From assembly GCA_020445645.1 (NCBI GenBank), contig JAGRGG010000075.1:1-62102 (forward strand): a stretch of 62,102 nucleotides of DNA, in the 5' to 3' direction. Position 1 is the stretch's first letter; each line of letters starts with the position of its first letter. The stretch is from Geminicoccaceae bacterium (GTDB taxonomy: Bacteria; Pseudomonadota; Alphaproteobacteria; Geminicoccales; Geminicoccaceae). The translations under genes and the position numbers were made by a program. The notes beneath the pieces are model-generated. The model did not search any database. It saw only the letters and a program-made list of their open reading frames with translations, and was not told the origin of the DNA. Of the stretch, positions 8,752-38,954 are shown piece after piece.

Positions 8752-8890
8752 ACGCTTCGCGTCCGCTGCGCGAGGTTTTTCCTTTCTTTTTCATCTGTTC
8801 GCCGTCCTTGATCCCGGCGCCGGGATCAAGGACGGCGAACAGATGAAAAAGAAAAAGAGAAGACCCCGCGCCAGCGGGCGCGAAGCGCGT
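8752..8890. repeat. Modular palindrome, copy A
   Basis: Outer GC-rich arms (8752-8780 and 8862-8890) face each other around a perfect inverted repeat of 36 bp per arm with no loop (8783-8818 and 8819-8854). The right arm begins 8 bp after the stop codon of the metallo-hydrolase gene (8898). The left arm lies 54 bp from the uvrC start. The arms contain ACGCTTCGCGTCCGCT-like sequence shared with other copies in this window. A hairpin of this size should stop transcription leaving the hydrolase gene, and it could extrude as a cruciform. Confidence 0.85.
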
Positions 8891-16038: not shown

Positions 16039-17073
16039 CTACTGCTGCGCCCCGCCGAAGCTGCCCCTGACGGATGAGGGGCCGGTGAGGCAGAAGGTGC
16101 CGCCAACCTCCTCGGCGGCGGGGCCGAAGAAGCGGCCGCCGACGGTGCCGACGTGGCCGTTGCTGGAGGTGATGCCGTCGCCCGAGAAGGCGGCGTCGGC
16201 GATGGCGAGCGGGCCGGTGTCGATCGTGCCCCAGGTCCCGGCGGCGTCCTTGAGCGCGATGTCGCCCCGGACGCTGCCGGCGGCGAAGTCGGCGGCCGCC
16301 TCGAACGTGCCGAGCAGCAGGCCGCCCGCGTCGCCGCCGGTCTCGACGGCGGTGGCGGCACCCGTGTAGTCGGCGCTGCCGGTCGTCGGCACGGCGTCGG
16401 CCGCCGTCCGCACGCCGCCGAAGAAGGCTCCGGCCTCGTCGTAGCCGCCGCCGTCGGCGGTCGCGGTCGCCCAGACGCCGAACGCCGTGTAGTCGAGAGG
16501 ACCCGCGCCGAGGGGGGAGCCGCCCGGCTCGCTGGCGAGGCCGATCGCCTTGCCGTCCGCGCTCGCGTAGTCGGTGAAGCCGTCGTCGGTGGCCCCCGCC
16601 GTCAGGACCGCCACCGTGGCGCCGCCCTGGGCGATGGTGATGCCGCCGTCGCCGCCGTAGGCCGCCGTTGTCGCCGTTTCCTTGTTCGACGGGCCGGCCT
16701 CGAAGCTGGCGCCGCTGCCGGCGCCGATCGCCTCGCCGAGCGTCGGCGTCGCGGTGCCGCCGGTCGTGGCCCCGCCGGTGGTGGTGCCGCCGCCGGTGGT
16801 TCCGCCGGTCGTCGTCCCACCCGTAGTGGTGCCGCCGGTCGTCGTCCCACCCGTGGTGGTGCCGCCACCCGTCGTAGTATCACCCCCGGTGGTGGTGCCG
16901 CCGGTCGTCGTATCCCCGCCCGTCGTCCCCCCGGTGGTGGTGTCGCCGCCGGTGGTCCCGCCCGTCGTCGTGCCGCCGGGCGTGCCCGGGCTGTCGTTGT
17001 CGCCGCCGCCGCACGCGGCAAGGATCAAAGTCATGGCTGTAAAACAAACCGACAGTCGCAGCATCGTTTCCAT
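16039..17073 (-). CDS. TbpB-like beta-barrel lipoprotein, paralogue 1
   Basis: A 344-residue predicted lipoprotein with lipobox LILAAC (Cys21). A threonine/glycine linker built of TTGG-type units follows (about 25-115), then a C-terminal domain. That domain carries landmarks shared with its two neighbours and with TbpB/factor-H-binding-protein barrels: LDYTAFGVW, FFGGVRTAADAVPTTGSADY, an ADF-then-G strand, and GHVGTVGGRFFGPAAEEVGG before a final GSFGGAQQ. It is probably surface or outer-membrane anchored, with an unknown ligand. ATG 17073 was chosen by analogy with paralogue 2 (METML versus MKKTML). The linker is encoded by tandem GC-rich DNA repeats. No Slam-type exporter or TonB receptor is adjacent. 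Confidence 0.75.
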   Translation of the reverse strand: METMLRLSVCFTAMTLILAACGGGDNDSPGTPGGTTTGGTTGGDTTTGGTTGGDTTTGGTTTGGDTTTGGGTTTGGTTTGGTTTGGTTTGGTTGGGTTTGGATTGGTATPTLGEAIGAGSGASFEAGPSNKETATTAAYGGDGGITIAQGGATVAVLTAGATDDGFTDYASADGKAIGLASEPGGSPLGAGPLDYTAFGVWATATADGGGYDEAGAFFGGVRTAADAVPTTGSADYTGAATAVETGGDAGGLLLGTFEAAADFAAGSVRGDIALKDAAGTWGTIDTGPLAIADAAFSGDGITSSNGHVGTVGGRFFGPAAEEVGGTFCLTGPSSVRGSFGGAQQ

Positions 17074-17136
17074 CCCGTCGCCGTTTGGTCCAGGATAGGA
17101 TGGCAATATGGACCGACTGTCAAGGAAACACCGCTC

Positions 17137-17164
17137 GTCGCCCTGAATTCACTTTCAGGGCGAC
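17137..17164 (-). terminator. Hairpin between lipoproteins 1 and 2
   Basis: GTCGCCCTGAA and TTCAGGGCGAC form a perfect 11-bp stem with a 6-nt loop, 38 bp beyond the stop of paralogue 2. No strong T-tract follows in the minus direction. It may end or attenuate transcripts of paralogue 2 before paralogue 1. Confidence 0.55.
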
Positions 17165-17201
17165 GTATTGTTCTGGCAGTTCTTCCGGGGGGGGCGAAGC
17201 C

Positions 17202-18194
17202 TTACTGGGCGGCGGCGCCGAAGCTGCCCTTGACGGTCGAGGGGCCGGTGAGGCTGAAGGCGCCGCCGATCTCGTCGGCGGCGGGGCCGAAGAAGCGGCC
17301 GTTGGCGTTGCCGGTGTGGCCGAGGCTGGAGGTGGCGCCGCTGCCGGAGAAGCCGCCGCCGGTGATGCTGAGCGTGCCCGTCTGAACGGTGCCCCAGGCG
17401 GCCCCGGTCTGGTCGCTCAAGGTCGCCGTGCCGCTGAGCGTATGGGCTGCGAAGTCGGCGCTGGCCACGAAGCCGCCGTCGAGGACGCTGGCCTTGAGGT
17501 CGCTGCCGTAGGCGAGGGCCGCGGCCTTGCCGGCGTAGCCCGCCGTGCCCGTCGTCGGCACGGCGGTGCTGGCCGTGCGCACGCCGCCGAAGAAGCTGCC
17601 CGCGTCGCTCAGCGTCACCGTCCCGTTTCCGGTCTGGGCGGGGTTGACGACGGCCCAGAAGCCGAACGCGGTGTAGTCGAGCGGGTTGCCCGGCTGGCTG
17701 AACGTCGCCACCGCGTTGCTGGTCTGGTTCTCGTAGATGAAGAAGCCGTCGCCTTGGTCGCTGCGCGCGTCGGTGCCGAACGCGAGCGCGCCCCGACTGC
17801 GGGTGAAGGCGAGGCCGCCATCGGTGCCGACGGTAAGGCCGACGGTGCCGCCGCCCTGCGCGTTCTGGGCGTCGAACGCGGCGCCGCCGCCGGCGCTGAT
17901 CGCCTGCGAGAGGGTGGGGGTCGTCGTCCCGCCGGTGGTGGTGCCGCCCGTCGTGGTCGTGGTGCCGCCGGTGGTCGTGGTGCCGGTGCCGCCGGTGGTC
18001 GTGGTGCCGGTGCCGCCGGTGGTCGTGGTGGTGCCGCCGGTGGTCGTCGTGCCGCCCGTCGTCGTGGGGGCGCCGCCGGAAGTCGTGCCGCCGGGGGTGC
18101 CGCCGCTGTCGCCGCCGCCCCCGCCGCTGCAGGCAGCAAGGACCAAGGCGAGGGCCGTGAGGCAGGGGAGCGTGCGCAGCATGGTTTTCTTCAT
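17202..18194 (-). CDS. TbpB-like beta-barrel lipoprotein, paralogue 2
   Basis: A 330-residue paralogue with lipobox LVLAAC (Cys22). Its linker consists of TTTTGG blocks, including TGTTTTGG repeated as 24-bp DNA units. The barrel domain starts at about TPTLSQAISAGGGAAFD. Landmarks are LDYTAFGFWAV, FFGGVRTASTAVPTTGTAGY, GHTGNANGRFFGPAADEIGG and a terminal GSFGAAAQ. It resembles paralogue 1 closely in the domain but not in linker length, as expected after tandem duplication and linker slippage. The function is inferred only from the TbpB_B_D-like pattern. Confidence 0.75.
   Translation of the reverse strand: MKKTMLRTLPCLTALALVLAACSGGGGGDSGGTPGGTTSGGAPTTTGGTTTTGGTTTTTGGTGTTTTGGTGTTTTGGTTTTTGGTTTGGTTTPTLSQAISAGGGAAFDAQNAQGGGTVGLTVGTDGGLAFTRSRGALAFGTDARSDQGDGFFIYENQTSNAVATFSQPGNPLDYTAFGFWAVVNPAQTGNGTVTLSDAGSFFGGVRTASTAVPTTGTAGYAGKAAALAYGSDLKASVLDGGFVASADFAAHTLSGTATLSDQTGAAWGTVQTGTLSITGGGFSGSGATSSLGHTGNANGRFFGPAADEIGGAFSLTGPSTVKGSFGAAAQ
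17941..18060. repeat. In-frame tandem repeats encoding the paralogue 2 linker
   Basis: A 24-bp unit that begins CCGCCGGTGGTCGTGGTG recurs head to tail with small variants, encoding TGTTTTGG-type blocks on the minus strand. Unit length is a multiple of three, so slippage would change linker length without a frameshift. Confidence 0.7.
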
Positions 18195-18307
18195 CCCGTC
18201 CGAGGCGTCGGGTCTCCTTTAACCTTGCGCGCCGCCCCGGGGAAGTGTTTCGGCCAAAAAGGCGCACCGGGGAATGGAGATGGGCCGTGCGGGCGCCATG
18301 CCGAATG

Positions 18308-18340
18308 AAAAAGAGGCCGGGCGCTTGGGGGCGCCCGGCC
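18308..18340 (-). terminator. Rho-independent terminator of lipoprotein 3
   Basis: GGCCGGGCGC and GCGCCCGGCC form a perfect 10-bp stem with a 6-nt loop. In the minus direction this is followed by TCTTTTTC. It stands 23 bp after the stop codon of paralogue 3 and is the clearest intrinsic terminator in the window. Confidence 0.85.
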
Positions 18341-18362
18341 GGGGCTGGAGGAGGAGGGTCGG

Positions 18363-19484
18363 CTACTTCTTCGCGCCGAAGGCGCCGCGGATCTCCGTGG
18401 TCGCCGTGCCTGAGGAGCCGGCGCCGATGCCGAACTGGCCACCGATCTCGTCGGCGTTGGGCCCGAAGAAGTGGCCGTCGACGGAACCGGTCTTGTGTCC
18501 CCGGTTCGAGGTGATGCCACCCTTGAAGCCGTTGCCGGTGATCGCAACCGTGCCGAGCTTCAAGGTGCCCCAGGCGTCGCCGTTCTCCTGGACGAGGCTC
18601 ATGCTGCCGCTGAGCTTGTTGTTGCCGAAGTCGGCCGCGAGGCTCGCGGCACCCGTGAGGTCGTTGACGACGAGACGGCTGGCGGCGTCGTACTCGATGG
18701 CGTCGACGGCGCCGGCGTAGGCCGCCGTGCCCGTCGTCGGCATCGCCGCACTGTCGGTGCGGAGGCCGCCGTAGTAGGTGCCGACATCGCTGAGGACGAC
18801 GGGCGCGTCCTCCGAGTCGGGGAGGGCGGCGGTGCTGCCCCAGACGCCGAACGCGGTGTAGTCGAGTTGCTGCCCCATGACCTCGCCGCCGAGGTCGTTG
18901 ATGTCGAGGGCGACGGCCGGGCCATCCCCGGCGAGGTAGGAGACCAAGCCGTCCCGCGTCTCCAGCGCCTGCGCCTGCCCGAAGGCGGTGGCGGTCCCGG
19001 CGGTCACGTCCGTCAGGGTGATCGTGCCTTCCTGGTCGATCTCGACCTTGATCTTGTTGCCGACGTCCGAGTCGCGCGCCGTGAAGAACACCGGCTCGCC
19101 GGTCTTGAGCGCCGCTTCGATCGGGGCGTTGCCGGCGAGGAGGGGTTCGGCCGCCGGGCTGCCGCCCGTGTTGCCGCCGGGGACGGGGTCGGCCGGGTCG
19201 GTGCCGCCGCCCGTGTTGCCGCCGGGGGCCGGGTCGGTCGTGCCGCCCGTGTTGTCGCCGGGGACCGGGGTAGGATTGGTCGTGCCGCCCGTGGAACCAC
19301 CAGTGTTGCCGCCGTTCGACGCGCCACTGTTGTTGCCCGGCTTGATCGTGTCGCCGCCGTTGTCGGCGTCGCTGCCGCCGTTGCCGGCAGCCGGGGTCGA
19401 GGGGCGATCGCCGCCGCCGCCGCTGCAGGCGCCGAGCGTGAGCATGAGGGCGACGGCCGTGAGGGTAAGAGGGGTGCGAAGCAT
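18363..19484 (-). CDS. TbpB-like beta-barrel lipoprotein, paralogue 3
   Basis: A 373-residue lipoprotein with lipobox LTLGAC (Cys20) and the same C-terminal plan: LDYTAFGVWGSTAAL, YYGGLRTDSAAMPTTGTAAY, GHKTGSVDGHFFGPNADEIG and a final IRGAFGAKK. Its linker differs from the other two; it is richer in N, D and P, with repeated PGGNTGG and GTDPADPVPGG units (about 25-120). The domain is longer and more acidic, so it is the most diverged of the three. ATG 19484 follows AGGAAAAGG at 8 nt. It is first in the minus-strand order and has its own terminator, so the three genes may be transcribed separately. Confidence 0.75.
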   Translation of the reverse strand: MLRTPLTLTAVALMLTLGACSGGGGDRPSTPAAGNGGSDADNGGDTIKPGNNSGASNGGNTGGSTGGTTNPTPVPGDNTGGTTDPAPGGNTGGGTDPADPVPGGNTGGSPAAEPLLAGNAPIEAALKTGEPVFFTARDSDVGNKIKVEIDQEGTITLTDVTAGTATAFGQAQALETRDGLVSYLAGDGPAVALDINDLGGEVMGQQLDYTAFGVWGSTAALPDSEDAPVVLSDVGTYYGGLRTDSAAMPTTGTAAYAGAVDAIEYDAASRLVVNDLTGAASLAADFGNNKLSGSMSLVQENGDAWGTLKLGTVAITGNGFKGGITSNRGHKTGSVDGHFFGPNADEIGGQFGIGAGSSGTATTEIRGAFGAKK

Positions 19485-19634
19485 GTTGTCACCTTTTCCT
19501 TGCGAGAGGCGCCGTTTCCGGCCTAGGACGAACATACCTCAAGTCCCCGAGAGCAAAATCGCCCGCAGGGTTAATAGATTGTATAGTATGACCGTTTATT
19601 AAATCTTAAAATAAACCTCCTTACTTGTTCGTGG

Positions 19635-20345
19635 TTAAGAAGGGTGGTCGCGCAGATCCTCCAGCCGCCGGATCTGCCTGCCGTCCGCGAAGTTGGCGGG
19701 CTCCAGCCACGCCTCGAACGCGGCGGCGAGGCGGGGCCACTCGGCGTCGGTGGCGCTGAACCACGCCGTGTCGCGGTTGCGGCCCTTGACGACCGTCGCC
19801 TGCCGGAACACCCCCTCGAAGACGAGGCCGAGCCGCAGCGCCGCCCGGCGCGAGGGCGCGTTGAGGGCGTCGCACTTCCACTCGAAGCGGCGGTAGCCGA
19901 GTTCGGCGAAGGCGCGGCGCATGAAGAGGTAGAGCGCCTCGGTCGTGGCCGCCGTACGCTGGAGAAGGGGGCCGAAATGGATGTGGCCGACCTCGATGGC
20001 GCCGTTCGCAGGGTCGATCCTCAGATAGGACGCGAGCCCGACCGCCCGTCCCGCCTCGTCCAGAACGGCGTGGAACAGGGGGTCATCGCTCTTGGCACGG
20101 TCGGCGAGCCATGCCCGGAACTCGTCTTCATCATCGAATGGGCCGTAGGGCAGGTAGGTCCAGTTGCGGACCTCGCCTTCGACGCAGAGAAAGCGCCAGA
20201 GGTCGGCGCCGTGGCGCTCGGGGTCGAGCGGCTCGATGCGGCAATGGCGGCCCGCCATCGGCGCGCGCGGCGGGCGGGGGCGGGTCGTCCAGCCGGGGAC
20301 GACGTGGCCGACCGGCTGGCCGAAATCGTTCGTGGGCACGGGCAA
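19635..20345 (-). CDS. GNAT-family N-acetyltransferase (RimJ/RimL-like)
   Basis: A 236-residue acetyltransferase of the RimJ/RimL type. Its features are RIEPLDPERHGADLW, an acetyl-CoA-binding region with IEVGHIHFGPLLQRTAATTE, and a long FRWKCDALN-like strand (RRFEWKCDALNAPSRRAALR) typical of members that modify proteins or small amines. The start at 20345 gives an N-terminal extension MPVPTNDFGQPVG that is often seen in this subfamily. The substrate is unknown. It is preceded on the transcribed strand by copy B of the modular palindrome. Confidence 0.85.
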   Translation of the reverse strand: MPVPTNDFGQPVGHVVPGWTTRPRPPRAPMAGRHCRIEPLDPERHGADLWRFLCVEGEVRNWTYLPYGPFDDEDEFRAWLADRAKSDDPLFHAVLDEAGRAVGLASYLRIDPANGAIEVGHIHFGPLLQRTAATTEALYLFMRRAFAELGYRRFEWKCDALNAPSRRAALRLGLVFEGVFRQATVVKGRNRDTAWFSATDAEWPRLAAAFEAWLEPANFADGRQIRRLEDLRDHPS

Positions 20346-20434
20346 GCCCCTTCCTGAAAGACGTTGCCCGGATCATGCCCCAACGGGCGGCGAAGGGTCA
20401 GGACCACTGCCTGGGGTAGCGGGGGAGCCGGTGA

Positions 20435-20572
20435 ACGCTTCGCGTCCGCTGGCGCGGGGCCTTTTTCCTCTGTTTTTCTGTTTGTTGAAGGTTGGCTCCA
20501 CCGTTCGTGCCAGCCTCGAACAACAAACAGAAAGAAGAAAAAGAAGGCCCCGCGCCAGCGGACGCGGAGCGT
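20435..20572. repeat. Modular palindrome, copy B
   Basis: The outer arms (20435-20462 and 20545-20572) match at 27 of 28 positions and contain CGCGTCCGCTGGCGCGGGGC. Inside are T-rich tracts, CTGTTTGTTG facing CAACAAACAG, and a weaker central stem unrelated to those of copies A and C. The right arm ends 2 bp from the stop codon of the cyclophilin gene (20575); the left arm is 90 bp from the acetyltransferase start. Confidence 0.85.
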
Positions 20573-20574
20573 GT

Positions 20575-21114
20575 CTACTTCTCCGCGTCCGCCGCGACCT
20601 GGACCTTGATCATCTTGTCCGGGTTGCGCGGGGGCTCGCCAGGGGTGATGTTGTCGACGTACTGCATCCCGTCGACGACCTTGCCCCAGATGGTGTACTC
20701 GCCGTTGAGGTGCGGGGCCGGGGCGAACATGATGAAGAACTGCGCGTTGGCGCTGTTCGGATTCGCCGTCCGGGCCATGCCCATCGTGCCGCGCTCGAAC
20801 GACTTGTCGCGGCTGAACTCGGCCTTGAGGTCGGGCTTGTCGGAGCCGCCCGTGCCGGTGCCGGTGGGATCGCCCGTCTGCGCCATGAAGCCGGGGATGA
20901 CGCGGTGGAACACGACCCCGTCGTAGAACCCTTCGCGGGCCAGCTCCTTGATCCGGGCGACGTGCTTCGGCGCCACGTCGGGGAACATCTCGACGGTGAC
21001 GCGGCCGTCCTTCAGGTCGATGTAGAGCGTGTTCTCGAGGTCGGCGGCCTTGGCGCCGGCGGGTGCGGTCATGGCGAGGATCAGTCCTGCTAATAGGGTG
21101 AGGGTCTTGAGCAA
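20575..21114 (-). CDS. Exported cyclophilin-type peptidyl-prolyl isomerase
   Basis: A 179-residue cyclophilin that speeds cis-trans isomerisation at proline. Core motifs are VVFHRVIPGFMAQTGDPTGTG, FERGTMGMART, SANAQFFIMFAPAPHLNGEY and FGKV-like WGKVVDGM. The TTG at 21114 has AAGGAG 8 nt upstream and yields a convincing signal peptide (LKTLTLLAGLILAMTAPAGAKA). Starting at the internal ATG 21072 would remove it. It therefore probably acts in the periplasm. Copy B of the modular palindrome lies directly downstream. Confidence 0.92.
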   Translation of the reverse strand: MLKTLTLLAGLILAMTAPAGAKAADLENTLYIDLKDGRVTVEMFPDVAPKHVARIKELAREGFYDGVVFHRVIPGFMAQTGDPTGTGTGGSDKPDLKAEFSRDKSFERGTMGMARTANPNSANAQFFIMFAPAPHLNGEYTIWGKVVDGMQYVDNITPGEPPRNPDKMIKVQVAADAEK

Positions 21115-21184
21115 AGGCCCGGCTCCTTGGGTGAGGGTGGCCGGGAAGGTGGCGGGGGACGCCGCCGTTTGCAACCTTTGGACG

Positions 21185-21508
21185 TTACGCCGCGCTGGCG
21201 CAGTCGATGCACAGGGGCGCGGCGGGATCGGACTCCAGACGCTGGTCCTGGATGCGCTCGCCGCAGCGGACGCAGTCGCCGTATTCGCCGGCATCGATCC
21301 GCTCGATGGCCGCCTGGACGCGGACGAGCTCGCGCTCGCGGCGCTGCTCGATCGCCATCGCCATCGCCTGCTCCTGCATCGCCTCGGCCGGGCCGGCGCG
21401 CGCTTGGTCGGCGGCGCCTTCCAGCTCGTGGGGCCTGATGGACAGGGCCAGTTCGGCCGCCTTCTCGTCCAGCAGCTTCCTGAAACGCTTCACGTCGGGT
21501 TTGGACAT
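21185..21508 (-). CDS. DksA/TraR-family zinc-finger protein
   Basis: A 107-residue coiled-coil protein with a C-terminal four-cysteine zinc finger (C79, C82, C100, C103 in CVRCGERI and LCIDC). DksA/TraR proteins enter the RNA polymerase secondary channel and modify promoter response, often with ppGpp. This one is shorter than canonical DksA (about 140-150), so it is a short DksA-like paralogue rather than the main one. The coiled-coil tip acidic pair is not obvious in EQRRERELVRVQ. ATG 21508 starts MSKPDVKRFRKLLDEKAAEL. It is divergent from prfC. Confidence 0.85.
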   Translation of the reverse strand: MSKPDVKRFRKLLDEKAAELALSIRPHELEGAADQARAGPAEAMQEQAMAMAIEQRRERELVRVQAAIERIDAGEYGDCVRCGERIQDQRLESDPAAPLCIDCASAA

Positions 21509-28602: not shown

Positions 28603-29454
28603 CTACGCCTTTAGCCTGTAGCCCCGGCGCAAAAGCGCAAGGGCCAATCCCCAGAGCGCGGCGGAGACCACGAGGAGGTAGAGGGCGCCGACGGCGACGG
28701 AGCCGTCGGCGTGGCCGGTGAGGCCGTAGCGCAGGCCGTCGATCATGTAGAAGAAGGGGTTGGCGAGCGCCACGGCGTGGAACGCCTCGGGCAGGGCCTG
28801 GATCGAGTAGAACGTGCCGGAGAGGAAGGAGAGAGGGGTGATGATGAAGTTGGTGACGGCCGCCATCTGGTCGAACTTCTCGGCCCAAAGGGCGGCGAGG
28901 AAGCCCAGGAGCGAGAGGACGAGGGAGGCGGCGAGCACGTAGTAGAGGACGGCCCAGAGGTGGTGTGGGACGACGTCGGCGAACGGCAGCATCGTCAGCC
29001 AGACGACGGTGGCGACGAGGAAGCCGCGGGTGACGCCGCCCATCGTCACGCCAAACAGGAGTTCACCGGCCGAGAGGGGCGGCATCAGGTAGTCGACGAT
29101 GTTGCCCTGGACCTTGGCGATGATGATCGACGACGAGGTGTTGGAAAAGGCGTTCTGGATCACCGACATCATGACGAGGCCGGGGGCGAGGAAGGTGAGG
29201 TACGGCAGGTTGCCAACGGTGCGGCTGGCGCCGCCGAGTGCCAGCGAGAACACGGCAAGGAAGATGAGCGTCGTCGCCACCGGGGCCAGCACGGTCTGAG
29301 TGACGACCTTCATGAAGCGGCGGACCTCCTTCACGTAGAGGGTCCAAAGGCCGACGTAGTTGATGTCCCAGAACGTGCCGAAGGTGGTACCGTCTTCCGG
29401 CAGGTCGAGCGCCGGCGCCCGCGCCTCGCCGCCTGTGCTTGCCATTCCGTCCAT
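28603..29454 (-). CDS. ABC-2 type transporter permease
   Basis: A 283-residue inner-membrane protein with about six transmembrane segments and the ABC-2 motif ([21 protein letters not shown], then [20 protein letters not shown]). Such permeases work with a separate ATPase to export polysaccharides, drugs or lipids. No ATPase gene is adjacent, so the partner must lie elsewhere. The start codon overlaps the tamB stop (TGATG), which implies coupling to the MscS-TamA-TamB operon. The first 30 residues are cytoplasmic and acidic. Confidence 0.88.
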
Positions 29455-32400
29455 CAGTAGTCGACGCTCCAGTTGATGCCGGCGCCCGAATTGCCGTCCG
29501 AGCCCACCTCGGTCGTGGCGTCGAAGCCCTTGCCGAGGTCGACCTCGACCTTCGCCTTCGAGGTCCCCGTAGTCAGGCCCTGCTCGACCTGGAGGAACAC
29601 CCGGTCGGAGATGTACTTGCCGGCGGTGATCGCACTCTGGTCGCCCTCGCCGCCGATGTCGAGCGTATCGAGGGCAAGGCTGCCGCGCAGCCTGTCGAGG
29701 ACACCGGGACCGCCGCCCTGTAGTTCCTGGACGGCGGCGGCGAGCTTGAGGCCCTGGGCCGGGGTGATCTCGGTCACGTCGCGGTCGAACAGGAGCTTGG
29801 CCAGCACCTCGTCCTGGGGCAGTTCGGGCTCGCTCGTGAGCGCGAAGTCCGGGCTGGTCGCCGACCCCGATACCTTGATGACGGCGGTGAAGTCGTCGCG
29901 CTTGGCCCTCGCTTCCAGGTTTACCTCGGGGTTCGGCGGAGTGTCGCCGGTGAAGACGAGGCTGCCGGTCTGGATCTCGAAGCGCCTGTCGAGGAAGTCG
30001 AGGAAGCCGCGGCGGAAATCAATCGAGCCGACGATCCGGGGTGCCGCCGAGGTGCCCTTGATGTCGAGCTTGCCGCCCCACTCGGATTCGAGCCCGCGCC
30101 CGCGCACGAAGATGCGCTCCGGTGCCGCAAAGGCGATGTCGAGCCCGACGGGGAAGGCGGGTTCCATGGCGGCCGCCGGCCGGGGCTTGCCGACGACGCG
30201 GCCATTCTTGACCTCGACGACGTCCAGGGTCGCAGGGTCGGTGACGCCGCCGGACGGGATGCGCAGGTCGGCGTTCTCGACCCGGATCCTGCCGGACGCT
30301 TTCGCCGCTTCCGTGTCGCCTTCAAGGACGAGGTCGCTCGTGACGATGGCGCGGCCGAGGTCGCTGTCGAGGAGACGGGCGTCCTTGGTCTTCAGGTCAA
30401 GGCTGTAGGGAAAGTGGCGCTCCGGTTCGACGTCGAGCCGGCCCGTCGCCTTGACCGTGCCCTCGGCCGCGTCGGCGTCGAGGTTGACGATCCTGACCGT
30501 GCGCCCGTCGGCTTGGAGGTCTAGGCGGACATTGCGCAGCCGTACGCCCGAGTTCACGTCGGTCAAGGTGCCGCCCTGAAGGTCGGCCTTGCCGTTGACG
30601 AGCGGGCGGGCGGGCGTGCCGCCGAGGCCGAGGTCGATGCCAAGCTCGCCGGAGGCCGTCTGGCCGTCGAGCTGCGCCAGCATCACGGCGCGGCCGAGGT
30701 CGACGACGCCCTGAATGCCGCCGTCGAGTGGGCGGTCCTGCGGCAGGGCGAAGGCGAAGGGTTGCAGGGACAGGTCCATCGGCACGCTGGCGTCGACCCG
30801 AAGGGGCTTCTCGAAGAGGTTGGCGATATCGAGGTTGGTTCTGAAGGTGGCATCCTTGTAGGCGCCGTTCAGGTCGATCTGTGCGGGGGGGATGTTGCCG
30901 TAGGCGGGGTCGGCAAGCCGCACCCCCTCGCCCGTCGCATCGACTCGGATCACCGGGGCGTCGGCTAGGCCCGAGAGCCCGATCGTGGCCTCCACCGTGC
31001 CGTCGACGTGCTGCTTCTCGGCGATGTAAGGGTCGAGGAGGGAAAGCTTCAGGTTGCGGAGGCGGAGATCGCCCGAAAGGGCGTTGCCGGCGAGGCGGGC
31101 GTTGCCCGCGAGGCGGGCGGGGCCGTAGGAGAGGTCGAGGCCCTCCAGGCTGTAGCCGTTCGGAAGGAGGGCGAAGGTGGCGGGGGCGGCGAGGCGGATC
31201 GGCTCGTCGGCGACCCGGCCGTCCACCCGCTCCAGCCGCACGGTCTTCGTCCGGCTCTTCGCATCGACCGTGGCCGCGGCGTCGAGTTGGAAGGGGGTCG
31301 GCCCCCGCTCGCCGGCGAAGCCCGCCTCGACGGCGAGGTTCTCAAGCCCACCTTCGGCGGCGACGCTCGCCCTGGACAGCTTCAGGTCGCCCTGCTCGAA
31401 GCGGTCGAGGCCGAGCGAGGCGTCGACGACGGGGGCCTTCAGCGCGTCGGCGACGGCGGCGTCGAGGCGGACGCCCCGCACCGTGCCGAAGGCGCCCGCG
31501 ACCTCGGGGGCGTTCGCCTTGACATGGACGTTCTGCCGCCCCTTGGCCGCGTCGAAGGCAAGGTCGAGGTCGGTCGAGCCGTCGATCTTCCGGCCGATGA
31601 AGGGCTCCAGCGCCGCGAGGTCGGCCGCTTGGCCCTTCAGGCTGCCGTCGACGAGGTTGGTGGTGCGGTTCAGGACGAGCCCACCCTTGAGGTCGGTCGC
31701 TGGCGCCTTTAGGTCGAGGTCGCTCAGGGTCAGAGTCTTCGAGGTCAGCCTGTAGGCGGCGTCGAGCGCCACGTCCTTGCCCCGCGTCCGGGCAGTGAGC
31801 GCCATCTTGCCGCCGAGGTCGTCGGTCGGCCCTTTCGCCGTAGCGTCGAGGTCGACCTTGGAGAAGTCACGCCCGGCGACCCGCAGGGGTTCGAGCGCGG
31901 CGGCGAGCGTGACGTCCGGCGCCTTGAGCGTGCCGCCGAGGTCGAGCTTCGCGGTCCCGGCGCCGTCGATGGGTTGGCCGACGATCGGTTGCAGGGCGGC
32001 GAGGTCAGGCAGGGTCAGCGCCACCTTGCCGCCGAGCGCCTGCCGCCCGTCCAGCCCGAGGCTGGCGTCGCCGTCGAGGCCGAGGTGCGCCGCTTTCAGG
32101 TCGATGCCGGAAAGGGCGACGCGCTCGTCCTTTCGGTAATCGACCTTGGCCTTCAGGGTCGGCTCCGGCCCGATCAGCGCCGTGGCGCTGCCCGGCAGGC
32201 CCTTGAGGCGCTGGGCGGCGAGGACGAGGTCGGCGGTGGCGTTCTTGAAGCCGGCGTCGAAGCTCGCCTGGACCTGGAGGTCGACTCCGCCCTTCGGGTC
32301 GGTGCCGGGGGGCAGTTGGTCCTTGAAGGCGTCCGCCACGCGGGCAAGTTCCGGGATCGCGGCGTCGAGCGTTGCCGTGCCGGCAAGTGAGGGCAACGCG

Positions 32401-34508
32401 GCCTCCGCCTTGCCGTTCGCCGTCAGGCTTGCCGTGTCGAGCACGAGGTTGTCCAGGGTGACGCGCTCGTCCTTTCGGTAGTCGACCTTGGCGGTGAGCG
32501 AGGGCGAGGGTCCCAGGACCGTGGCGGCGTTGGCGGGCAGGCCGGCGAGGTTCTGCGCTTTCAACGCCATGTCGCCCGTCACCCGCGCGAAGTTCGGCGC
32601 GAATGTGGCGTCGACGCGCAGGTCGGCGGCGCCCTTGGGGTCGAGATCCGGCGGGAGTCGGTCCGGAAAGGCGCGGGCGACCTTCGCCACCTCGGGCACC
32701 TCGGCCGTCAGTCTGGCGCTGCCCGCGAGCGAGGGAAGGGCGAGTTCGGCGGTGCCGTTGGCGCTCAGCGCTTCCGTCGTGAGGTCGAGGCCGTTCAGCG
32801 TGACCTTCTCGTCCTTCACGTAGTCCACGTTCGCCGTGAGCGTGGGGTTGCCGCCCACCACCTGCCCCAGATCGTTCGGCAGGCCCTTGAGGTTCTGCGC
32901 CGCGAGGCGAAGGTCGCCCGTGACGCGGGCAAGGTTGGCGGCGATGTCGGCGTCGAGGTCGAGGTTGACGGCACCGTCCAGGCCCTCGGTGCCGGCGGGG
33001 GCGAGCGGCCCCAAGGCGGTGCGCAGCCGGGCCACGTCCGGCACGCTCGCCGTGAGCTTCGCCTTGCCCTCATAAGAGGGGATGGCGATGTCGGCGGTGG
33101 CGTTGGCCTTGAAGGTGTCGCCGTTGAGCGCGAGACGCTGCAAGGACGCCTGCCCCTTCGTCGGCACGGTGGCGGCGACCTCGAAGGCGAGGCTGTCCTC
33201 CGGGCGGAGCGGCTCGCCGTTCTGGGTGACGCCCGCGATCTTGCCGCCGCCCTCGATGCGGGTTCCCTTGAACGGCTGATCGAGGGGGGCGAGCGGGCGG
33301 AGGTCCAGCTTGGCCTGGACGTTCCGGACGCCGTAGCCTTGCGCCTCGATGCCGCTGCCGTCCAGGTTGACGGTGAAGAGGGGTTCCTTGACCGAGCCCT
33401 CGGCGTCGACCGTGAGGTCGGCCGAGCCCTGGAGCGGCGTTCCGGCAAGGGCGCTCGCCCGTCGCAGTTCGGGCAGGCTCACCTTCACCCGCCCGCCAAG
33501 CTCGCCGGTCTTGAAGTCGACGCGGCCCTGCCCGTCGGTCTTGAGGAAGGCGCTCTCCAGGTCGAAGCGGCCCAATTGGAAGCTGTCGGGCGAGGTCTGC
33601 CCCGCCTCGATGTCGAGCGCGAACTGCTTGCCCAGGAGCGACCCCACGTTCTCCGGGAACCCTCCCGGCACCGGCACGACGACGGCGGAGAGGTCAACCT
33701 TCGGGGTGTCCGTGTAGTCGAGGCCGAGGTCGGCCTCGGCGTGGAGGAGGCTCTGCGCGTCGAGGACGAGGTCCGCCTTCCAGTCCTTGAGCGGCCCGTC
33801 GCCGTTCACGTCGAGGACGAGGCGGTCGGCCTCTGGGGTGTTGGTGAGGCGGGCGAGCAGCCCGCCCGACTCCTCCAGGTGCAGGTCCAGCTTCGCCGAC
33901 TGGGCGTCGAGGTTGAGAAGGGCGTCGAGGTCGAGCCGGGCCGTGTCCTCGTCGACCCGGCGCCCGTTCAGCTTGGCCTCGATCGTCTGCGCGTCGTCGC
34001 CCTGGGTGATGGCGCCCGTCAGCTTGAAGGTGGCGGCCTCGCCGAGGACGGGCTGCTTCAGTTCGATGCGGTCGAAGGCAAGGTTCTGGACGACGACCCG
34101 GCTGATCGCCGTCGGCAGTTGCGGCGGCTTCGGGAAGGTGAAGCCCTGCTGCGTGGTCGGCGGCGACTTCGGCGCGCGCTCGACGGTGACGTTTGCCGCC
34201 CCCAGCTTCTCGACCTCGAGGCGCCCCCGCAGGAGCGCCGTCGCCGTGATGTCGAGGGCGATGTCGCTCACGGTGAGCCACGTTCCCTCGGTGTCGCCGA
34301 TCGTCACCCTGTCGATGTGCACGTCGAAGGGGATGCCGGTCAGCCCCTCGATCTTCACCTTCTGGTTCTCGTTCGAGACCAGCCCCTCGATGAACGAGGT
34401 GAGCTGCTGGCGGACGAAGTCGACCTGGGCCAGGGCCGTGCCCGCCGTCGCCAGGAGGAGGACGAGCCCCGCCGGCAGGGCGACGTACCTGATCCGCTTC
34501 GCCGTCAT
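29454..34508 (-). CDS. tamB: Translocation and assembly module protein TamB
   Basis: A 1684-residue AsmA/TamB-family protein with one N-terminal membrane anchor (RIRYVALPAGLVLLLATAGTA). A very long beta-strand-rich, repetitive periplasmic portion follows; units such as VDYRKDERVTL and LTANGKAEAALPSLAG recur several times between about 550 and 900. The C-terminal DUF490 region contains GSIDFRRGFLDFLDRRFEI, SEPELPQDEVLAKLLFDRDV and KVEVDLGKGFDATTEVG. It spans the periplasm to TamA, helping outer-membrane protein insertion or lipid transport. ATG 34508 was chosen because upstream codons are not TamB-like. Length is above E. coli TamB (1259). Confidence 0.92.
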   Translation of the reverse strand: MTAKRIRYVALPAGLVLLLATAGTALAQVDFVRQQLTSFIEGLVSNENQKVKIEGLTGIPFDVHIDRVTIGDTEGTWLTVSDIALDITATALLRGRLEVEKLGAANVTVERAPKSPPTTQQGFTFPKPPQLPTAISRVVVQNLAFDRIELKQPVLGEAATFKLTGAITQGDDAQTIEAKLNGRRVDEDTARLDLDALLNLDAQSAKLDLHLEESGGLLARLTNTPEADRLVLDVNGDGPLKDWKADLVLDAQSLLHAEADLGLDYTDTPKVDLSAVVVPVPGGFPENVGSLLGKQFALDIEAGQTSPDSFQLGRFDLESAFLKTDGQGRVDFKTGELGGRVKVSLPELRRASALAGTPLQGSADLTVDAEGSVKEPLFTVNLDGSGIEAQGYGVRNVQAKLDLRPLAPLDQPFKGTRIEGGGKIAGVTQNGEPLRPEDSLAFEVAATVPTKGQASLQRLALNGDTFKANATADIAIPSYEGKAKLTASVPDVARLRTALGPLAPAGTEGLDGAVNLDLDADIAANLARVTGDLRLAAQNLKGLPNDLGQVVGGNPTLTANVDYVKDEKVTLNGLDLTTEALSANGTAELALPSLAGSARLTAEVPEVAKVARAFPDRLPPDLDPKGAADLRVDATFAPNFARVTGDMALKAQNLAGLPANAATVLGPSPSLTAKVDYRKDERVTLDNLVLDTASLTANGKAEAALPSLAGTATLDAAIPELARVADAFKDQLPPGTDPKGGVDLQVQASFDAGFKNATADLVLAAQRLKGLPGSATALIGPEPTLKAKVDYRKDERVALSGIDLKAAHLGLDGDASLGLDGRQALGGKVALTLPDLAALQPIVGQPIDGAGTAKLDLGGTLKAPDVTLAAALEPLRVAGRDFSKVDLDATAKGPTDDLGGKMALTARTRGKDVALDAAYRLTSKTLTLSDLDLKAPATDLKGGLVLNRTTNLVDGSLKGQAADLAALEPFIGRKIDGSTDLDLAFDAAKGRQNVHVKANAPEVAGAFGTVRGVRLDAAVADALKAPVVDASLGLDRFEQGDLKLSRASVAAEGGLENLAVEAGFAGERGPTPFQLDAAATVDAKSRTKTVRLERVDGRVADEPIRLAAPATFALLPNGYSLEGLDLSYGPARLAGNARLAGNALSGDLRLRNLKLSLLDPYIAEKQHVDGTVEATIGLSGLADAPVIRVDATGEGVRLADPAYGNIPPAQIDLNGAYKDATFRTNLDIANLFEKPLRVDASVPMDLSLQPFAFALPQDRPLDGGIQGVVDLGRAVMLAQLDGQTASGELGIDLGLGGTPARPLVNGKADLQGGTLTDVNSGVRLRNVRLDLQADGRTVRIVNLDADAAEGTVKATGRLDVEPERHFPYSLDLKTKDARLLDSDLGRAIVTSDLVLEGDTEAAKASGRIRVENADLRIPSGGVTDPATLDVVEVKNGRVVGKPRPAAAMEPAFPVGLDIAFAAPERIFVRGRGLESEWGGKLDIKGTSAAPRIVGSIDFRRGFLDFLDRRFEIQTGSLVFTGDTPPNPEVNLEARAKRDDFTAVIKVSGSATSPDFALTSEPELPQDEVLAKLLFDRDVTEITPAQGLKLAAAVQELQGGGPGVLDRLRGSLALDTLDIGGEGDQSAITAGKYISDRVFLQVEQGLTTGTSKAKVEVDLGKGFDATTEVGSDGNSGAGINWSVDY

Positions 34509-34555
34509 GTGCCCGCCTTCCTCATCCGGCCCCCGCCTGAAAAACCCCGGCCCGC

Positions 34556-36463
34556 TCAAAACGCCTGCCCGATGCTGATGTAGAACTGGAAGGAGTCGTC
34601 GACATCCCGCTTGTTCAAGGGGAAGGCCACGTCGAGGCGGATCGGCCCCACCGGCGTCAGGTAGCGGGCGCCCAGGCCGTAGCCGACACGGGCATCGTCG
34701 AAGGAGGGGGCCGTGCTGTCGAACGCGCTGCCGGCGTCGACGAAGGCCGCGAACTCGACGTTCTCGAAGGCGCGGTAGCGGAGTTCGGCGCCGGTCTCCA
34801 GGAGCGAGAGCCCGCCCGTCGGCTCGCCGTCCTCCAAGGGCCCCGCCAATTGGTAGGGGATGCCGCGCACCGAGCCGCCGCCGCCGGCGTAGAACCGCTC
34901 GTCGGCCGGCACCTCCTCGCGGTCGGCGCCGGCGATCGTGCCGGCGCCGGCCTTGAAGGCGAGGACGAGGCGGGGCTCGTTCATGAGGCGGAGATAGGCG
35001 GTGCCGACCGCCTGCGCCTTGAAGAAGTGGGTGCCGACGCCGAGCGTATCGAGGTAGGGGGCGGCCTTGAGCGTGAGGCGCCAGCCCTTCGAGGGGTCGA
35101 GGAGGCTGTCCGCGTAGTCGAGGCGAAGCGTGCCGGGCAAAGAGAGGAGGCCGTAGTTCGTGTTGCCGACGGTAAGCTCGTCGCTGATGCGCACGAAGCG
35201 GTAGCTGAGGCCGAGCGTGCCCGTGGTGTGGGCGTCGAAGCGGCGCTCCAGCCCGACCCCGCCGCCGATCGAGCGGGCGTCGTAGGCGTCGGTGTTCTCC
35301 CGCCCGACCGAGGCGTCGGCGACGAGGTCGAGGTCGCGGACGCGGCCGATGTCGGGCTTGCGAAAGGTGAGGTCGGCGCTGAGGTCGACCTGCGACCACG
35401 TGGCGTCGAAGCGCAGCTTCTCGCCGGCGTTGAAGAGGTTGCGGTTCTCCCAGAACGCGCGCACCTCCGGCCCCGTATCGGTGTAGTAGCCGAGCCCGCC
35501 GCCGATCGTGCGGTGCTGGCGCTGGGTAAGCTCGGCCGTGACCGGCAGGCGGCCGTCGGGGCCGACCGCGTCGCCCGACCGGACGCGCACGACGCTGAAC
35601 AGGTTCGTGTTGACGAGGCTCTGCCGGGCCGCGTCGATCGCGCCCAGGCTGAAGGTCTGCCCCGGCTCGATGCCCATGCGCGTGCGCAGGAACTTCTCGT
35701 CGAGGTCGCCGTCGCCCATGATCGTCGGGCGCTGCATGGCGACGACGGGACCGGGCTCGATCGCCAGCGTCACGTCCATCGTGTTCGCGTCGAGGTCGAC
35801 GACGGCGCGGCGGTCGCCGAGCTTGGCGAACGCCCGCCCGTCGTTCTTCGCGTCGTCGAGCAGCGTCTTCTCGGCGTCGAGCACCGTCTGCGCCAGCGCC
35901 GGCTCGCCCTGCTTGATGCCGAGGTCGCCGGCCACGTTCGGAGGCGCGTAGCCCTTCGCCCCGCCTTCGACCCGGACCCCGCGCTCGGCGAAGCGGAACC
36001 GCGGCCCCGGCGTCACCTCGTAGACGAGGCGGGTGGGGGCACCCTCGATCAGCTTTTGGATCTCGGCGCCCACCTCGGCCGGCGTGTCGGTGGTGCCGTC
36101 CTCCTTGAGGAGGCGGTCCCTGTCCTGGACGATCCTGTAGGCGGCCTTGCCCTCGTAGTAGCCCTGTGCCCTCAACCCCTGAAGGAGGCGGGGCAGGTCG
36201 TCCTCGGCGCGGGTGCGCAGGACGAGGAGGTTCGAGGGGGGACGGTCGGTCGCCGCCGCCGCCTTGCTCACCGAGCTTAGGTAGCTTTCAAGCCCCTCCG
36301 GCAGCGTCCCCCCGCCCGCCGTCTCGACCTTCACGTCGTAGGGGAGCTTCGGCCCGGTCTCGGCCGGGTCGTCGCCGATCCTGGCGTCGCCCCCGCCGCA
36401 GCCGGCGACGGCGAGGGTCAGGAAGGCGGCGAGGGTCGGACGCTTCATGAAGGGTCTTTTCAT
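34556..36463 (-). CDS. tamA: TamA-type outer-membrane assembly protein (Omp85), with lipobox
   Basis: A 635-residue Omp85 protein with POTRA domains (about 60-290) and a C-terminal 16-strand barrel. The family motif GGGGSVRGIPYQLAGP lies before LLETGAELRYRAFENVEFAAF, and the end ISIGQAF has the terminal aromatic. The N-terminus MKRPFMKRPTLAAFLTLAVA-GC reads as a lipoprotein signal with Cys22, unusual for TamA, which normally has a plain signal peptide. ATG 36463 overlaps the stop of the channel gene (ATGA); ATG 36448 is an alternative. tamB follows after 47 nt, so they form the usual pair. Confidence 0.9.
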   Translation of the reverse strand: MKRPFMKRPTLAAFLTLAVAGCGGGDARIGDDPAETGPKLPYDVKVETAGGGTLPEGLESYLSSVSKAAAATDRPPSNLLVLRTRAEDDLPRLLQGLRAQGYYEGKAAYRIVQDRDRLLKEDGTTDTPAEVGAEIQKLIEGAPTRLVYEVTPGPRFRFAERGVRVEGGAKGYAPPNVAGDLGIKQGEPALAQTVLDAEKTLLDDAKNDGRAFAKLGDRRAVVDLDANTMDVTLAIEPGPVVAMQRPTIMGDGDLDEKFLRTRMGIEPGQTFSLGAIDAARQSLVNTNLFSVVRVRSGDAVGPDGRLPVTAELTQRQHRTIGGGLGYYTDTGPEVRAFWENRNLFNAGEKLRFDATWSQVDLSADLTFRKPDIGRVRDLDLVADASVGRENTDAYDARSIGGGVGLERRFDAHTTGTLGLSYRFVRISDELTVGNTNYGLLSLPGTLRLDYADSLLDPSKGWRLTLKAAPYLDTLGVGTHFFKAQAVGTAYLRLMNEPRLVLAFKAGAGTIAGADREEVPADERFYAGGGGSVRGIPYQLAGPLEDGEPTGGLSLLETGAELRYRAFENVEFAAFVDAGSAFDSTAPSFDDARVGYGLGARYLTPVGPIRLDVAFPLNKRDVDDSFQFYISIGQAF

Positions 36464-38700: not shown

Positions 38701-38832
38701 CAAGACTCCTGATCGCTGCGCGTGCGCGGCGTTTTCCTCCTTTTGCGAGGTCGGATATAGGGTAGGGACGGGGTTCGGGGCCAGCCCGACCTTCTTGAAT
38801 CTCGCCGCTTTTGGCGCGACTGTCGCCTGTAA

Positions 38833-38954
38833 ACGCTTCGCGTCCACGTCCGCGGGGCCTTTTTCTTTTTTTTATCTGTTGATCGTATGTGGCATCGGCG
38901 TCTGTGCCACGCACGATCAACAAAAAGGCCCCGCGCCCGCGCCCGCGAAACGCA
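38833..38954. repeat. Modular palindrome, copy C
   Basis: The outer arms (38833-38864 and 38922-38954) are diverged but share GCGGGGCCTTTTT. The inner stem TGTTGATCGTATGTGGCA pairs with its opposite strand at 16 of 18 positions and differs from the stems of copies A and B. The right arm ends 7 bp from the galE stop codon. The left arm is 133 bp from the start of the MscS channel gene. Confidence 0.85.

What the first reader, a model, noticed from the sequence alone, without database searches (positions are those of the whole stretch)
16039..19484. Tandem array of three diverged TbpB-like lipoproteins
Three lipoproteins share a C-terminal domain with LDYTAFG, GG(V/L)RT...PTTG and G-x-FFGP-x-A-x-E-x-GG motifs, as in transferrin-binding protein B and factor H-binding barrels. 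Each has a differently built low-complexity linker. Such proteins are known mainly from host-associated Neisseria and Pasteurellaceae. A triple set without a neighbouring Slam exporter or TonB receptor suggests another ligand, perhaps another metal carrier or a surface adhesion role.
Basis: partly seen in the sequence, partly recalled or inferred. Interest (0 to 1): 0.6.

Follow-up and report, generated by a model that had tools for sequence, protein, structure and literature searches.

The report
Orphan Slam-type surface lipoprotein array
Three neighbouring genes encode membrane-anchored proteins of a known surface-displayed family, probably carried to the cell surface by a single exporter encoded elsewhere in the same genome that seems to serve about a dozen such proteins, in a bacterium where no receptor of the usual iron-uptake type was found.

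Summary
At 16039-19484 (minus strand) lie three lipoprotein genes, each with a lipobox, a low-complexity linker and one TbpB-like handle plus eight-stranded barrel. Pfam TbpB_B_D matches all three above cut-off. AlphaFold2 models of two of them match the TbpB C-lobe, HpuA and haemophilins at Z about 16-18. The genome has one Slam (T11SS outer-membrane exporter) on another contig, next to three related cargo genes. In all I count 12 cargo gene regions with 15 barrels for that one Slam. In the family, Slam and cargo occur in exactly the same 5 of 31 genomes. No TonB-receptor domain was found above cut-off in the genome, nor a plug domain in 4 of the 5 Slam-bearing family genomes, which speaks against a TbpB-, HpuA- or haemophilin-like route. 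Best reading: Slam-exported surface lipoproteins, a lineage-specific expansion, with a TonB-independent binding or adhesive role; ligand unknown. New member of a known kind; unusual are the single exporter for about a dozen scattered cargo genes and the absence of TonB receptors.

The parts
16039..17073 (-). cargo lipoprotein gene 1 (P0001, 344 aa; ATG 17073, alternative TTG 17106)
   Evidence: PF01298 46.0 bits; NF041636 65.2 bits, below the 80-bit cut-off
16750..17010 (-). low-complexity Thr/Gly linker of gene 1 (residues 22-108, GGDTTTGG/TTTGG units)
   Evidence: read from the translation; boundary
16042..16749 (-). handle plus eight-stranded barrel of gene 1
   Evidence: AlphaFold2 pLDDT 92.6, pTM 0.90; Z 18.0 to the TbpB C-lobe 5kkx, rmsd 3.9 over 200 residues
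17136..17165 (.). 12-pair perfect hairpin between genes 2 and 1
   Evidence: terminator scan lists it on the + strand, with its T-rich tail; the stem is symmetric, so it could also act on the minus-strand transcript (inferred)
17202..18194 (-). cargo lipoprotein gene 2 (P0002, 330 aa)
   Evidence: PF01298 45.8 bits; NF041636 60.8 bits, below cut-off
17922..18128 (-). Thr/Gly linker of gene 2 (residues 23-91)
   Evidence: read from the translation; boundary
18315..18340 (-). terminator-like hairpin downstream of gene 3 (10 G-C pairs plus T run)
18363..19484 (-). cargo lipoprotein gene 3 (P0003, 373 aa)
   Evidence: PF01298 64.9 bits; NF041636 76.9 bits, below cut-off
19164..19424 (-). low-complexity linker of gene 3 (Gly/Asn/Thr/Pro-rich, unlike the TTTGG linkers of 1 and 2)
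   Evidence: read from the translation; boundary
18366..19163 (-). handle plus eight-stranded barrel of gene 3
   Evidence: AlphaFold2 pLDDT 79.6, pTM 0.82, barrel mostly above 90 and handle 50-70; Z 17.9 HpuA 5ee4 (rmsd 2.9 over 193), Z 17.4 TbpB C-lobe 5kkx (rmsd 3.9 over 199)

Best explanation
The three genes encode cargo of a Slam / type 11 secretion system. Each protein crosses the inner membrane by Sec, is lipidated at its cysteine and goes to the outer membrane. The single Slam encoded on another contig then recognises its C-terminal TbpB-like barrel and moves it to the outer leaflet, where the low-complexity linker holds the handle-barrel head away from the membrane. They belong to a lineage-specific family of about 12 genes that appears to share this one exporter. 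No TonB-dependent receptor was found above cut-off in the genome, so they probably do not pass iron or haem to one. A TonB-independent binding, adhesive or surface-coat role is more likely. Shown by sequence and models: the genes, lipoboxes, fold, the single detected Slam, co-occurrence, expansion, absence of detected TonB receptors. Inferred: export by that Slam, surface exposure, function of the linker, ligand class.
For: Fold. Slam in the genome: PF04575 at C206:13702-14553, 72 bits over a 22-bit cut-off, covering 3-288 of 288, with a weak N-terminal TPR_Slam match (27.6 bits, below its 35.2-bit cut-off). Three cargo genes lie directly upstream of that Slam. Slam and cargo in the same 5 of 31 family genomes, neither in the other 26 (Fisher p 5.9e-6). 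48 of 48 cargo-bearing genomes from elsewhere have PF04575, 47 above cut-off (reached through 50 of 65 loci). 12 gene regions and 15 barrels. 12 of 13 own barrels placed in the tree fall in one group together with 4 barrels of family relatives. No plug domain and only one sub-cut-off PF00593 match, 20.7 against 27 bits, while the same searches ring in 3 of 14 control genomes. No plug in 4 of 5 Slam-bearing family genomes.
Against: NF041636, NCBI's Slam-dependent lipoprotein model, is matched below its 80-bit cut-off by all three and by 5 of 5 other own cargo proteins tested. In the wider set of 60 genomes (own included), co-occurrence is not perfect: 1 has Slam without a cargo match (G037, below cut-off) and 3 have weak slam_lipo matches without a detected Slam (G055, G057, G059). 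One Slam-bearing relative (G006) does have a plug domain. The genome is a 291-contig assembly, 95.8% complete, so a TonB receptor or second Slam could be in the missing part. TonB receptors also occur in only 12 of 26 Slam-less family genomes, and the difference from 1 of 5 is not significant (p 0.37). The related genomes are not independent, so the co-occurrence p value overstates the evidence. One unlinked cargo gene lies next to an Nramp metal transporter (C219), which could hint at a metal role.
Confidence: 0.65

Rival explanations
1. Haemophore or metal-carrier surface lipoproteins (HpuA, haemophilin or TbpB type) that capture haem or a metal carrier and pass it to a TonB-dependent receptor.
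For: The nearest folds are HpuA (Z 17.9), TbpB C-lobe and haemophilin. PMC5449769 (abstract, sections 12 and 14 read) reports TonB receptors in 120 of 185 lipoprotein-containing Slam clusters. A cargo paralogue sits beside an Nramp gene.
Against: No TonB plug domain in the genome, only a sub-cut-off barrel match, no plug in 4 of 5 Slam-bearing family genomes. None of the own-genome neighbours scanned is a haem or siderophore gene.
Confidence: 0.15
2. Ordinary outer-membrane lipoproteins that stay on the periplasmic side; the barrel similarity is real but they are not exported.
For: All fall below the NF041636 cut-off. The window genes lie on another contig than the Slam.
Against: Slam and cargo occur in exactly the same 5 of 31 family genomes and in 48 of 48 more distant cargo-bearing genomes; the same barrel type sits directly beside Slam in this genome.
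Confidence: 0.1
3. A narrower form of the best explanation: an adhesin or biofilm-matrix family specifically, in which the divergent paralogues bind surface glycans or matrix, with Thr-rich linkers that may be glycosylated.
For: Many divergent paralogues with one exporter and no TonB receptor detected; Thr/Gly-rich linkers; disordered N-termini are a described cargo architecture (PMC12282271 section 15 read).
Against: No adhesin-type domain was found in the three and the neighbours give no consistent hint.
Confidence: 0.4

Closest known systems
Slam-dependent surface lipoproteins / T11SS cargo with a C-terminal TbpB_B_D barrel (PF01298; NCBIfam NF041636)
   Same: Lipobox, linker, handle and barrel; a Slam in the genome and paralogues beside it.
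   Different: Below the NF041636 equivalog cut-off; encoded away from the Slam; about 12 gene regions for one detected Slam; no TonB receptor detected.
T11SS 'disordered N-terminus' cargo and 'Sphingomonas surface proteins' (PMC12282271; abstract, sections 14 and 15 and found passages read)
   Same: Long disordered N-terminal linker before the handle; the multi-barrel proteins upstream of the Slam resemble the multi-barrel class.
   Different: Linker is Thr/Gly (genes 1, 2) or Gly/Asn/Thr/Pro (gene 3), not Pro/Thr repeats; the window proteins have one barrel each.
TbpB (C-lobe), HpuA, haemophilin/HphA, NHBA, fHbp
   Same: Predicted fold.
   Different: One lobe only, about 14-28% identity in the structural alignments, no TonB receptor partner detected.

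Membership tests
T11SS/Slam cargo, broad sense (TbpB_B_D surface lipoproteins) | C-terminal TbpB_B_D eight-stranded barrel | tested here: met
   3 of 3 above the PF01298 cut-off; models of 2 of 3
T11SS/Slam cargo, broad sense (TbpB_B_D surface lipoproteins) | Sec signal, here with lipobox | tested here: met
   Read by eye in 3 of 3; no signal-peptide predictor was available
T11SS/Slam cargo, broad sense (TbpB_B_D surface lipoproteins) | A Slam (PF04575) in the same genome | tested here: met
   C206:13702-14553, 72 bits
T11SS/Slam cargo, broad sense (TbpB_B_D surface lipoproteins) | Slam-dependent surface exposure | not testable with these tools
   Needs an experiment
NCBIfam NF041636 equivalog | Score above the 80-bit cut-off | tested here: not met
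   65.2, 60.8 and 76.9 bits
TbpB | Two lobes, each handle plus barrel | tested here: not met
   One barrel per protein
TbpB | TonB-dependent partner receptor (TbpA) | tested here: not met
   No plug domain in the genome; PF00593 below cut-off; assembly 95.8% complete
HpuA / haemophilin | TonB-dependent haem receptor partner | tested here: not met
   assembly 95.8% complete
HpuA / haemophilin | Haem or haemoglobin binding | not testable with these tools
   No binding data; fold similarity alone
fHbp | PF08794 FHBP_C above cut-off | tested here: inconclusive
   1 of 3 above cut-off (31.4 against 28.1 bits), 2 of 3 below

The most novel reading that the evidence does not exclude
A single T11SS exporter acts as a hub for about a dozen dispersed surface lipoproteins in an alphaproteobacterium without TonB-dependent receptors. 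The TbpB-type head would then be a general surface-display scaffold whose widespread role is not iron or haem piracy but attachment or a variable surface coat, and iron capture would be a specialisation of host-associated lineages.
Probability: 0.4. Interest if true: 0.55.

Novelty: new member of a known kind. Interest (0 to 1): 0.35.

Why it matters
Experimentally verified Slam/T11SS cargo comes from animal-associated bacteria (PMC12282271, abstract) and is largely tied to TonB iron or haem uptake (PMC5449769, section 14). A genome with one detected Slam, a dozen cargo gene regions and no detected TonB receptor is a clean setting to ask what these proteins do without iron uptake, and how one exporter recognises many divergent barrels (36-50% identical within the window; 24-50% to a window protein across the genome's set).

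Tried and rejected
Rejected: that the missing neighbouring Slam means there is no exporter. Rejected: simple triplication of one gene. In the barrel tree genes 1 and 2 group with C267 and the first Slam-adjacent gene (98/90), gene 3 with C136 and the other two Slam-adjacent genes (96/97); the fork inside the first group is weak (97/18). One own barrel (C219) has a long branch and an unsure place. Tree rows: of 148 domain hits, those covering under 120 model positions were dropped (2 of 15 own barrels among them), and for the named loci only the best barrel per locus with more than 50 bits was kept (32 of 65 loci).

Led nowhere: gene context of the unlinked cargo genes (PEP mutase/GST, aconitase/Nramp, PAPS reductase, sulfatase) shows no common theme. 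The TTTGG linker DNA pattern, exact match, found 1 place only, at C206, so it does not tell whether the linkers are cargo-specific. A conservation profile showed the barrel more conserved than the handle (mean entropy 1.68 against 2.13 bits) but little difference between barrel strands and loops (1.63 against 1.78), so no ligand face stands out. A genome-contig scan with the full 13-row alignment was not possible (too divergent), so 4 rows were used. That scan may leave out the window's own organism; the species was not identified. Paper searches listed no paper on this expansion; that covers only the held open-licence library. Papers seen: PMC5449769 abstract, sections 12 and 14; PMC8406197 abstract, part 1 of section 4 and one found passage; PMC12282271 abstract, sections 14 and 15 and found passages; all other papers search listing only. 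The Lol sorting route and general knowledge of TbpB/HpuA partners are recalled.

An error corrected: the first Slam profile was seeded partly with wrong-frame ORFs, one a PqiA; it was rebuilt with in-frame seeds and gave the same 47 of 65.
Full report
Observation. Each has a lipobox (cysteine at residue 20, 22 and 21), a low-complexity linker and one handle-barrel domain. Genes 1 and 2 have TTTGG-type linkers; gene 3 has a Gly/Asn/Thr/Pro linker. A terminator-like hairpin follows gene 3 (18340-18315), and a perfect 12-pair hairpin lies between genes 2 and 1 (17136-17165); the scan lists the latter on the plus strand. The genes may therefore be separate transcription units rather than one operon (inferred).

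Family and fold. Pfam TbpB_B_D is above cut-off in 3 of 3, FHBP_C in 1 of 3. NCBI's slam_lipo model NF041636 matches at 65, 61 and 77 bits, below its 80-bit cut-off. A profile of 13 domains from this genome (10 of them from contigs other than the window's) finds TbpB (5.6e-24), NHBA (1.5e-14), haemophilin (3.1e-10) and, weakly, fHbp in the PDB by sequence alone. The AlphaFold2 model of gene 3's domain (pLDDT 79.6, pTM 0.82, handle uncertain) matches HpuA at Z 17.9 (rmsd 2.9 over 193) and the TbpB C-lobe at Z 17.4 (rmsd 3.9 over 199). Gene 1's domain (pLDDT 92.6, pTM 0.90) matches the TbpB C-lobe at Z 18.0 (rmsd 3.9 over 200), with haemophilins and HpuA tied. Gene 2 was not modelled.

The exporter. 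The window's genome (3.78 Mb, 291 contigs, 95.8% complete) has one PF04575 SlipAM match, C206:13702-14553, 72 bits, in a 500-aa protein with a sub-cut-off TPR_Slam match. Just upstream are three more cargo genes with one, two and two barrels. Before them stand OpgC and a DUF6675 gene; the relative G006 has OpgC, DUF6675 and Slam in the same order without cargo between. The Slam is at the end of its contig, so its downstream side is not seen.

The expansion. The slam_lipo search found 14 matches in the genome up to E 10, 13 of them at 0.001 or better. A profile built here gives 15 barrels in 12 gene regions: 3 in the window, 5 barrels in 3 genes on C206, one gene region with two barrels and one single on C136, one each on C219, C243 and C267, and one cut off by the end of contig C288. 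The two-barrel gene on C136 has its barrels in different frames, a frameshift or an assembly error. In the barrel tree 12 of 13 own barrels fall in one group with 4 barrels of family relatives (91/81). Genes 1 and 2 of the window group with C267 and the first Slam-adjacent gene; gene 3 groups with C136 and the other Slam-adjacent genes. The window array and the Slam-adjacent array thus each hold members of both subgroups, as if one block had been copied or dispersed (inferred).

Co-occurrence. In the 31 genomes held for the family, Slam and cargo occur in the same 5 (G000, G006, G008, G011, G025) and neither in the other 26 (p 5.9e-6; not independent). In a set of 60 genomes (own included; it contains those 31), 6 have both, 1 Slam only (below cut-off), 3 weak cargo matches only, 50 neither. 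A scan of named genomes gave 65 related loci. In 47 of 65 a Slam lies in the fetched stretch, in 18 not (some stretches are cut by contig ends). All 48 genomes behind the first 50 loci have PF04575, 47 above cut-off. In those genomes slam_lipo matches run from 0 to 13 per genome, often with a single Slam, for example 13 to 1 in Sphingomonas sp. NFR04 and 10 to 1 in Croceibacterium xixiisoli. So many cargo barrels per Slam is not unique to this genome.

TonB. No plug domain (PF07715) was found in the genome and only one PF00593 match of 20.7 bits, below its 27-bit cut-off; both searches ring in E. coli, Caulobacter and a Bacteroides control. Among the 5 Slam-bearing family genomes only G006 has a plug; among the 26 others 12 do, a difference that is not significant. 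PMC5449769 reports TonB receptors in 120 of 185 lipoprotein-containing Slam clusters, and multiple lipoprotein genes in only nine (section 14 read). Within the limits of a 95.8% complete assembly, these cargo proteins are unlikely to work as TbpB, HpuA or haemophilin do.

How it most likely works. Sec export, lipidation, transfer to the outer membrane, then Slam-dependent flipping to the surface through recognition of the barrel; the head is held out on a flexible linker. Ligand unknown; a TonB-independent binding, adhesive or coat role is favoured by elimination. Fold, exporter, co-occurrence and expansion are shown by the calls cited; export, exposure and role are inferred.

Neighbours. The genes scanned around the array are housekeeping or unrelated: an Obg-type GTPase, an amino-acid kinase with PUA domain, an ABC-F-like ATPase, an Mrr-type restriction protein, a GNAT acetyltransferase, cyclophilin, a DksA-type zinc finger protein, RF3, a class-III aminotransferase and an AraC-type regulator. 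Further genes include TamB, a BBP2_2 porin and an O-antigen ligase. Not every window gene was scanned.

Verdict. A real, well-preserved set of T11SS-type surface lipoproteins. New member of a known kind; moderately interesting for the single-exporter expansion without detected TonB receptors.

Noticed in passing
window 20435-20572; further copies at 8752-8890 and 38825-38952: An imperfect palindrome of about 140 bp with terminator-like stems at both ends, interspersed between genes; copies also on other contigs (L010 3914-4055, L011 2519-2639, L013 4680-4828; shorter pieces elsewhere).
   Followed up: partly
L012 5954-8017 (C136 about 37-39 kb): A two-barrel cargo gene region whose barrels lie in different reading frames, so it is frameshifted or misassembled.
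   Followed up: partly
L026 1094-6537 and L027 2553-8084 (relatives G011, G025): Cargo and Slam followed directly by PqiA and a MlaD-domain (PqiB-like) gene in the same order in both genomes; among the other loci searched the only PqiA homologue was a distant match in L088.
   Followed up: partly
L010 4696-6703 and L024 7411-9728: OpgC plus a DUF6675 gene precede the Slam locus in both the window's genome and relative G006.
   Followed up: partly
L032 530-2286 (G006) and window 16039-21294: A cargo gene lies beside a cyclophilin gene homologous to the one that sits one gene away from the window array; possibly an old shared position.
   Followed up: partly
window 29454-35399: A 1981-aa TamB-domain gene in the same window.
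   Followed up: no
L013 2873-4198 (C219): An Nramp-type metal transporter gene converges on the unlinked cargo gene of contig C219.
   Followed up: no
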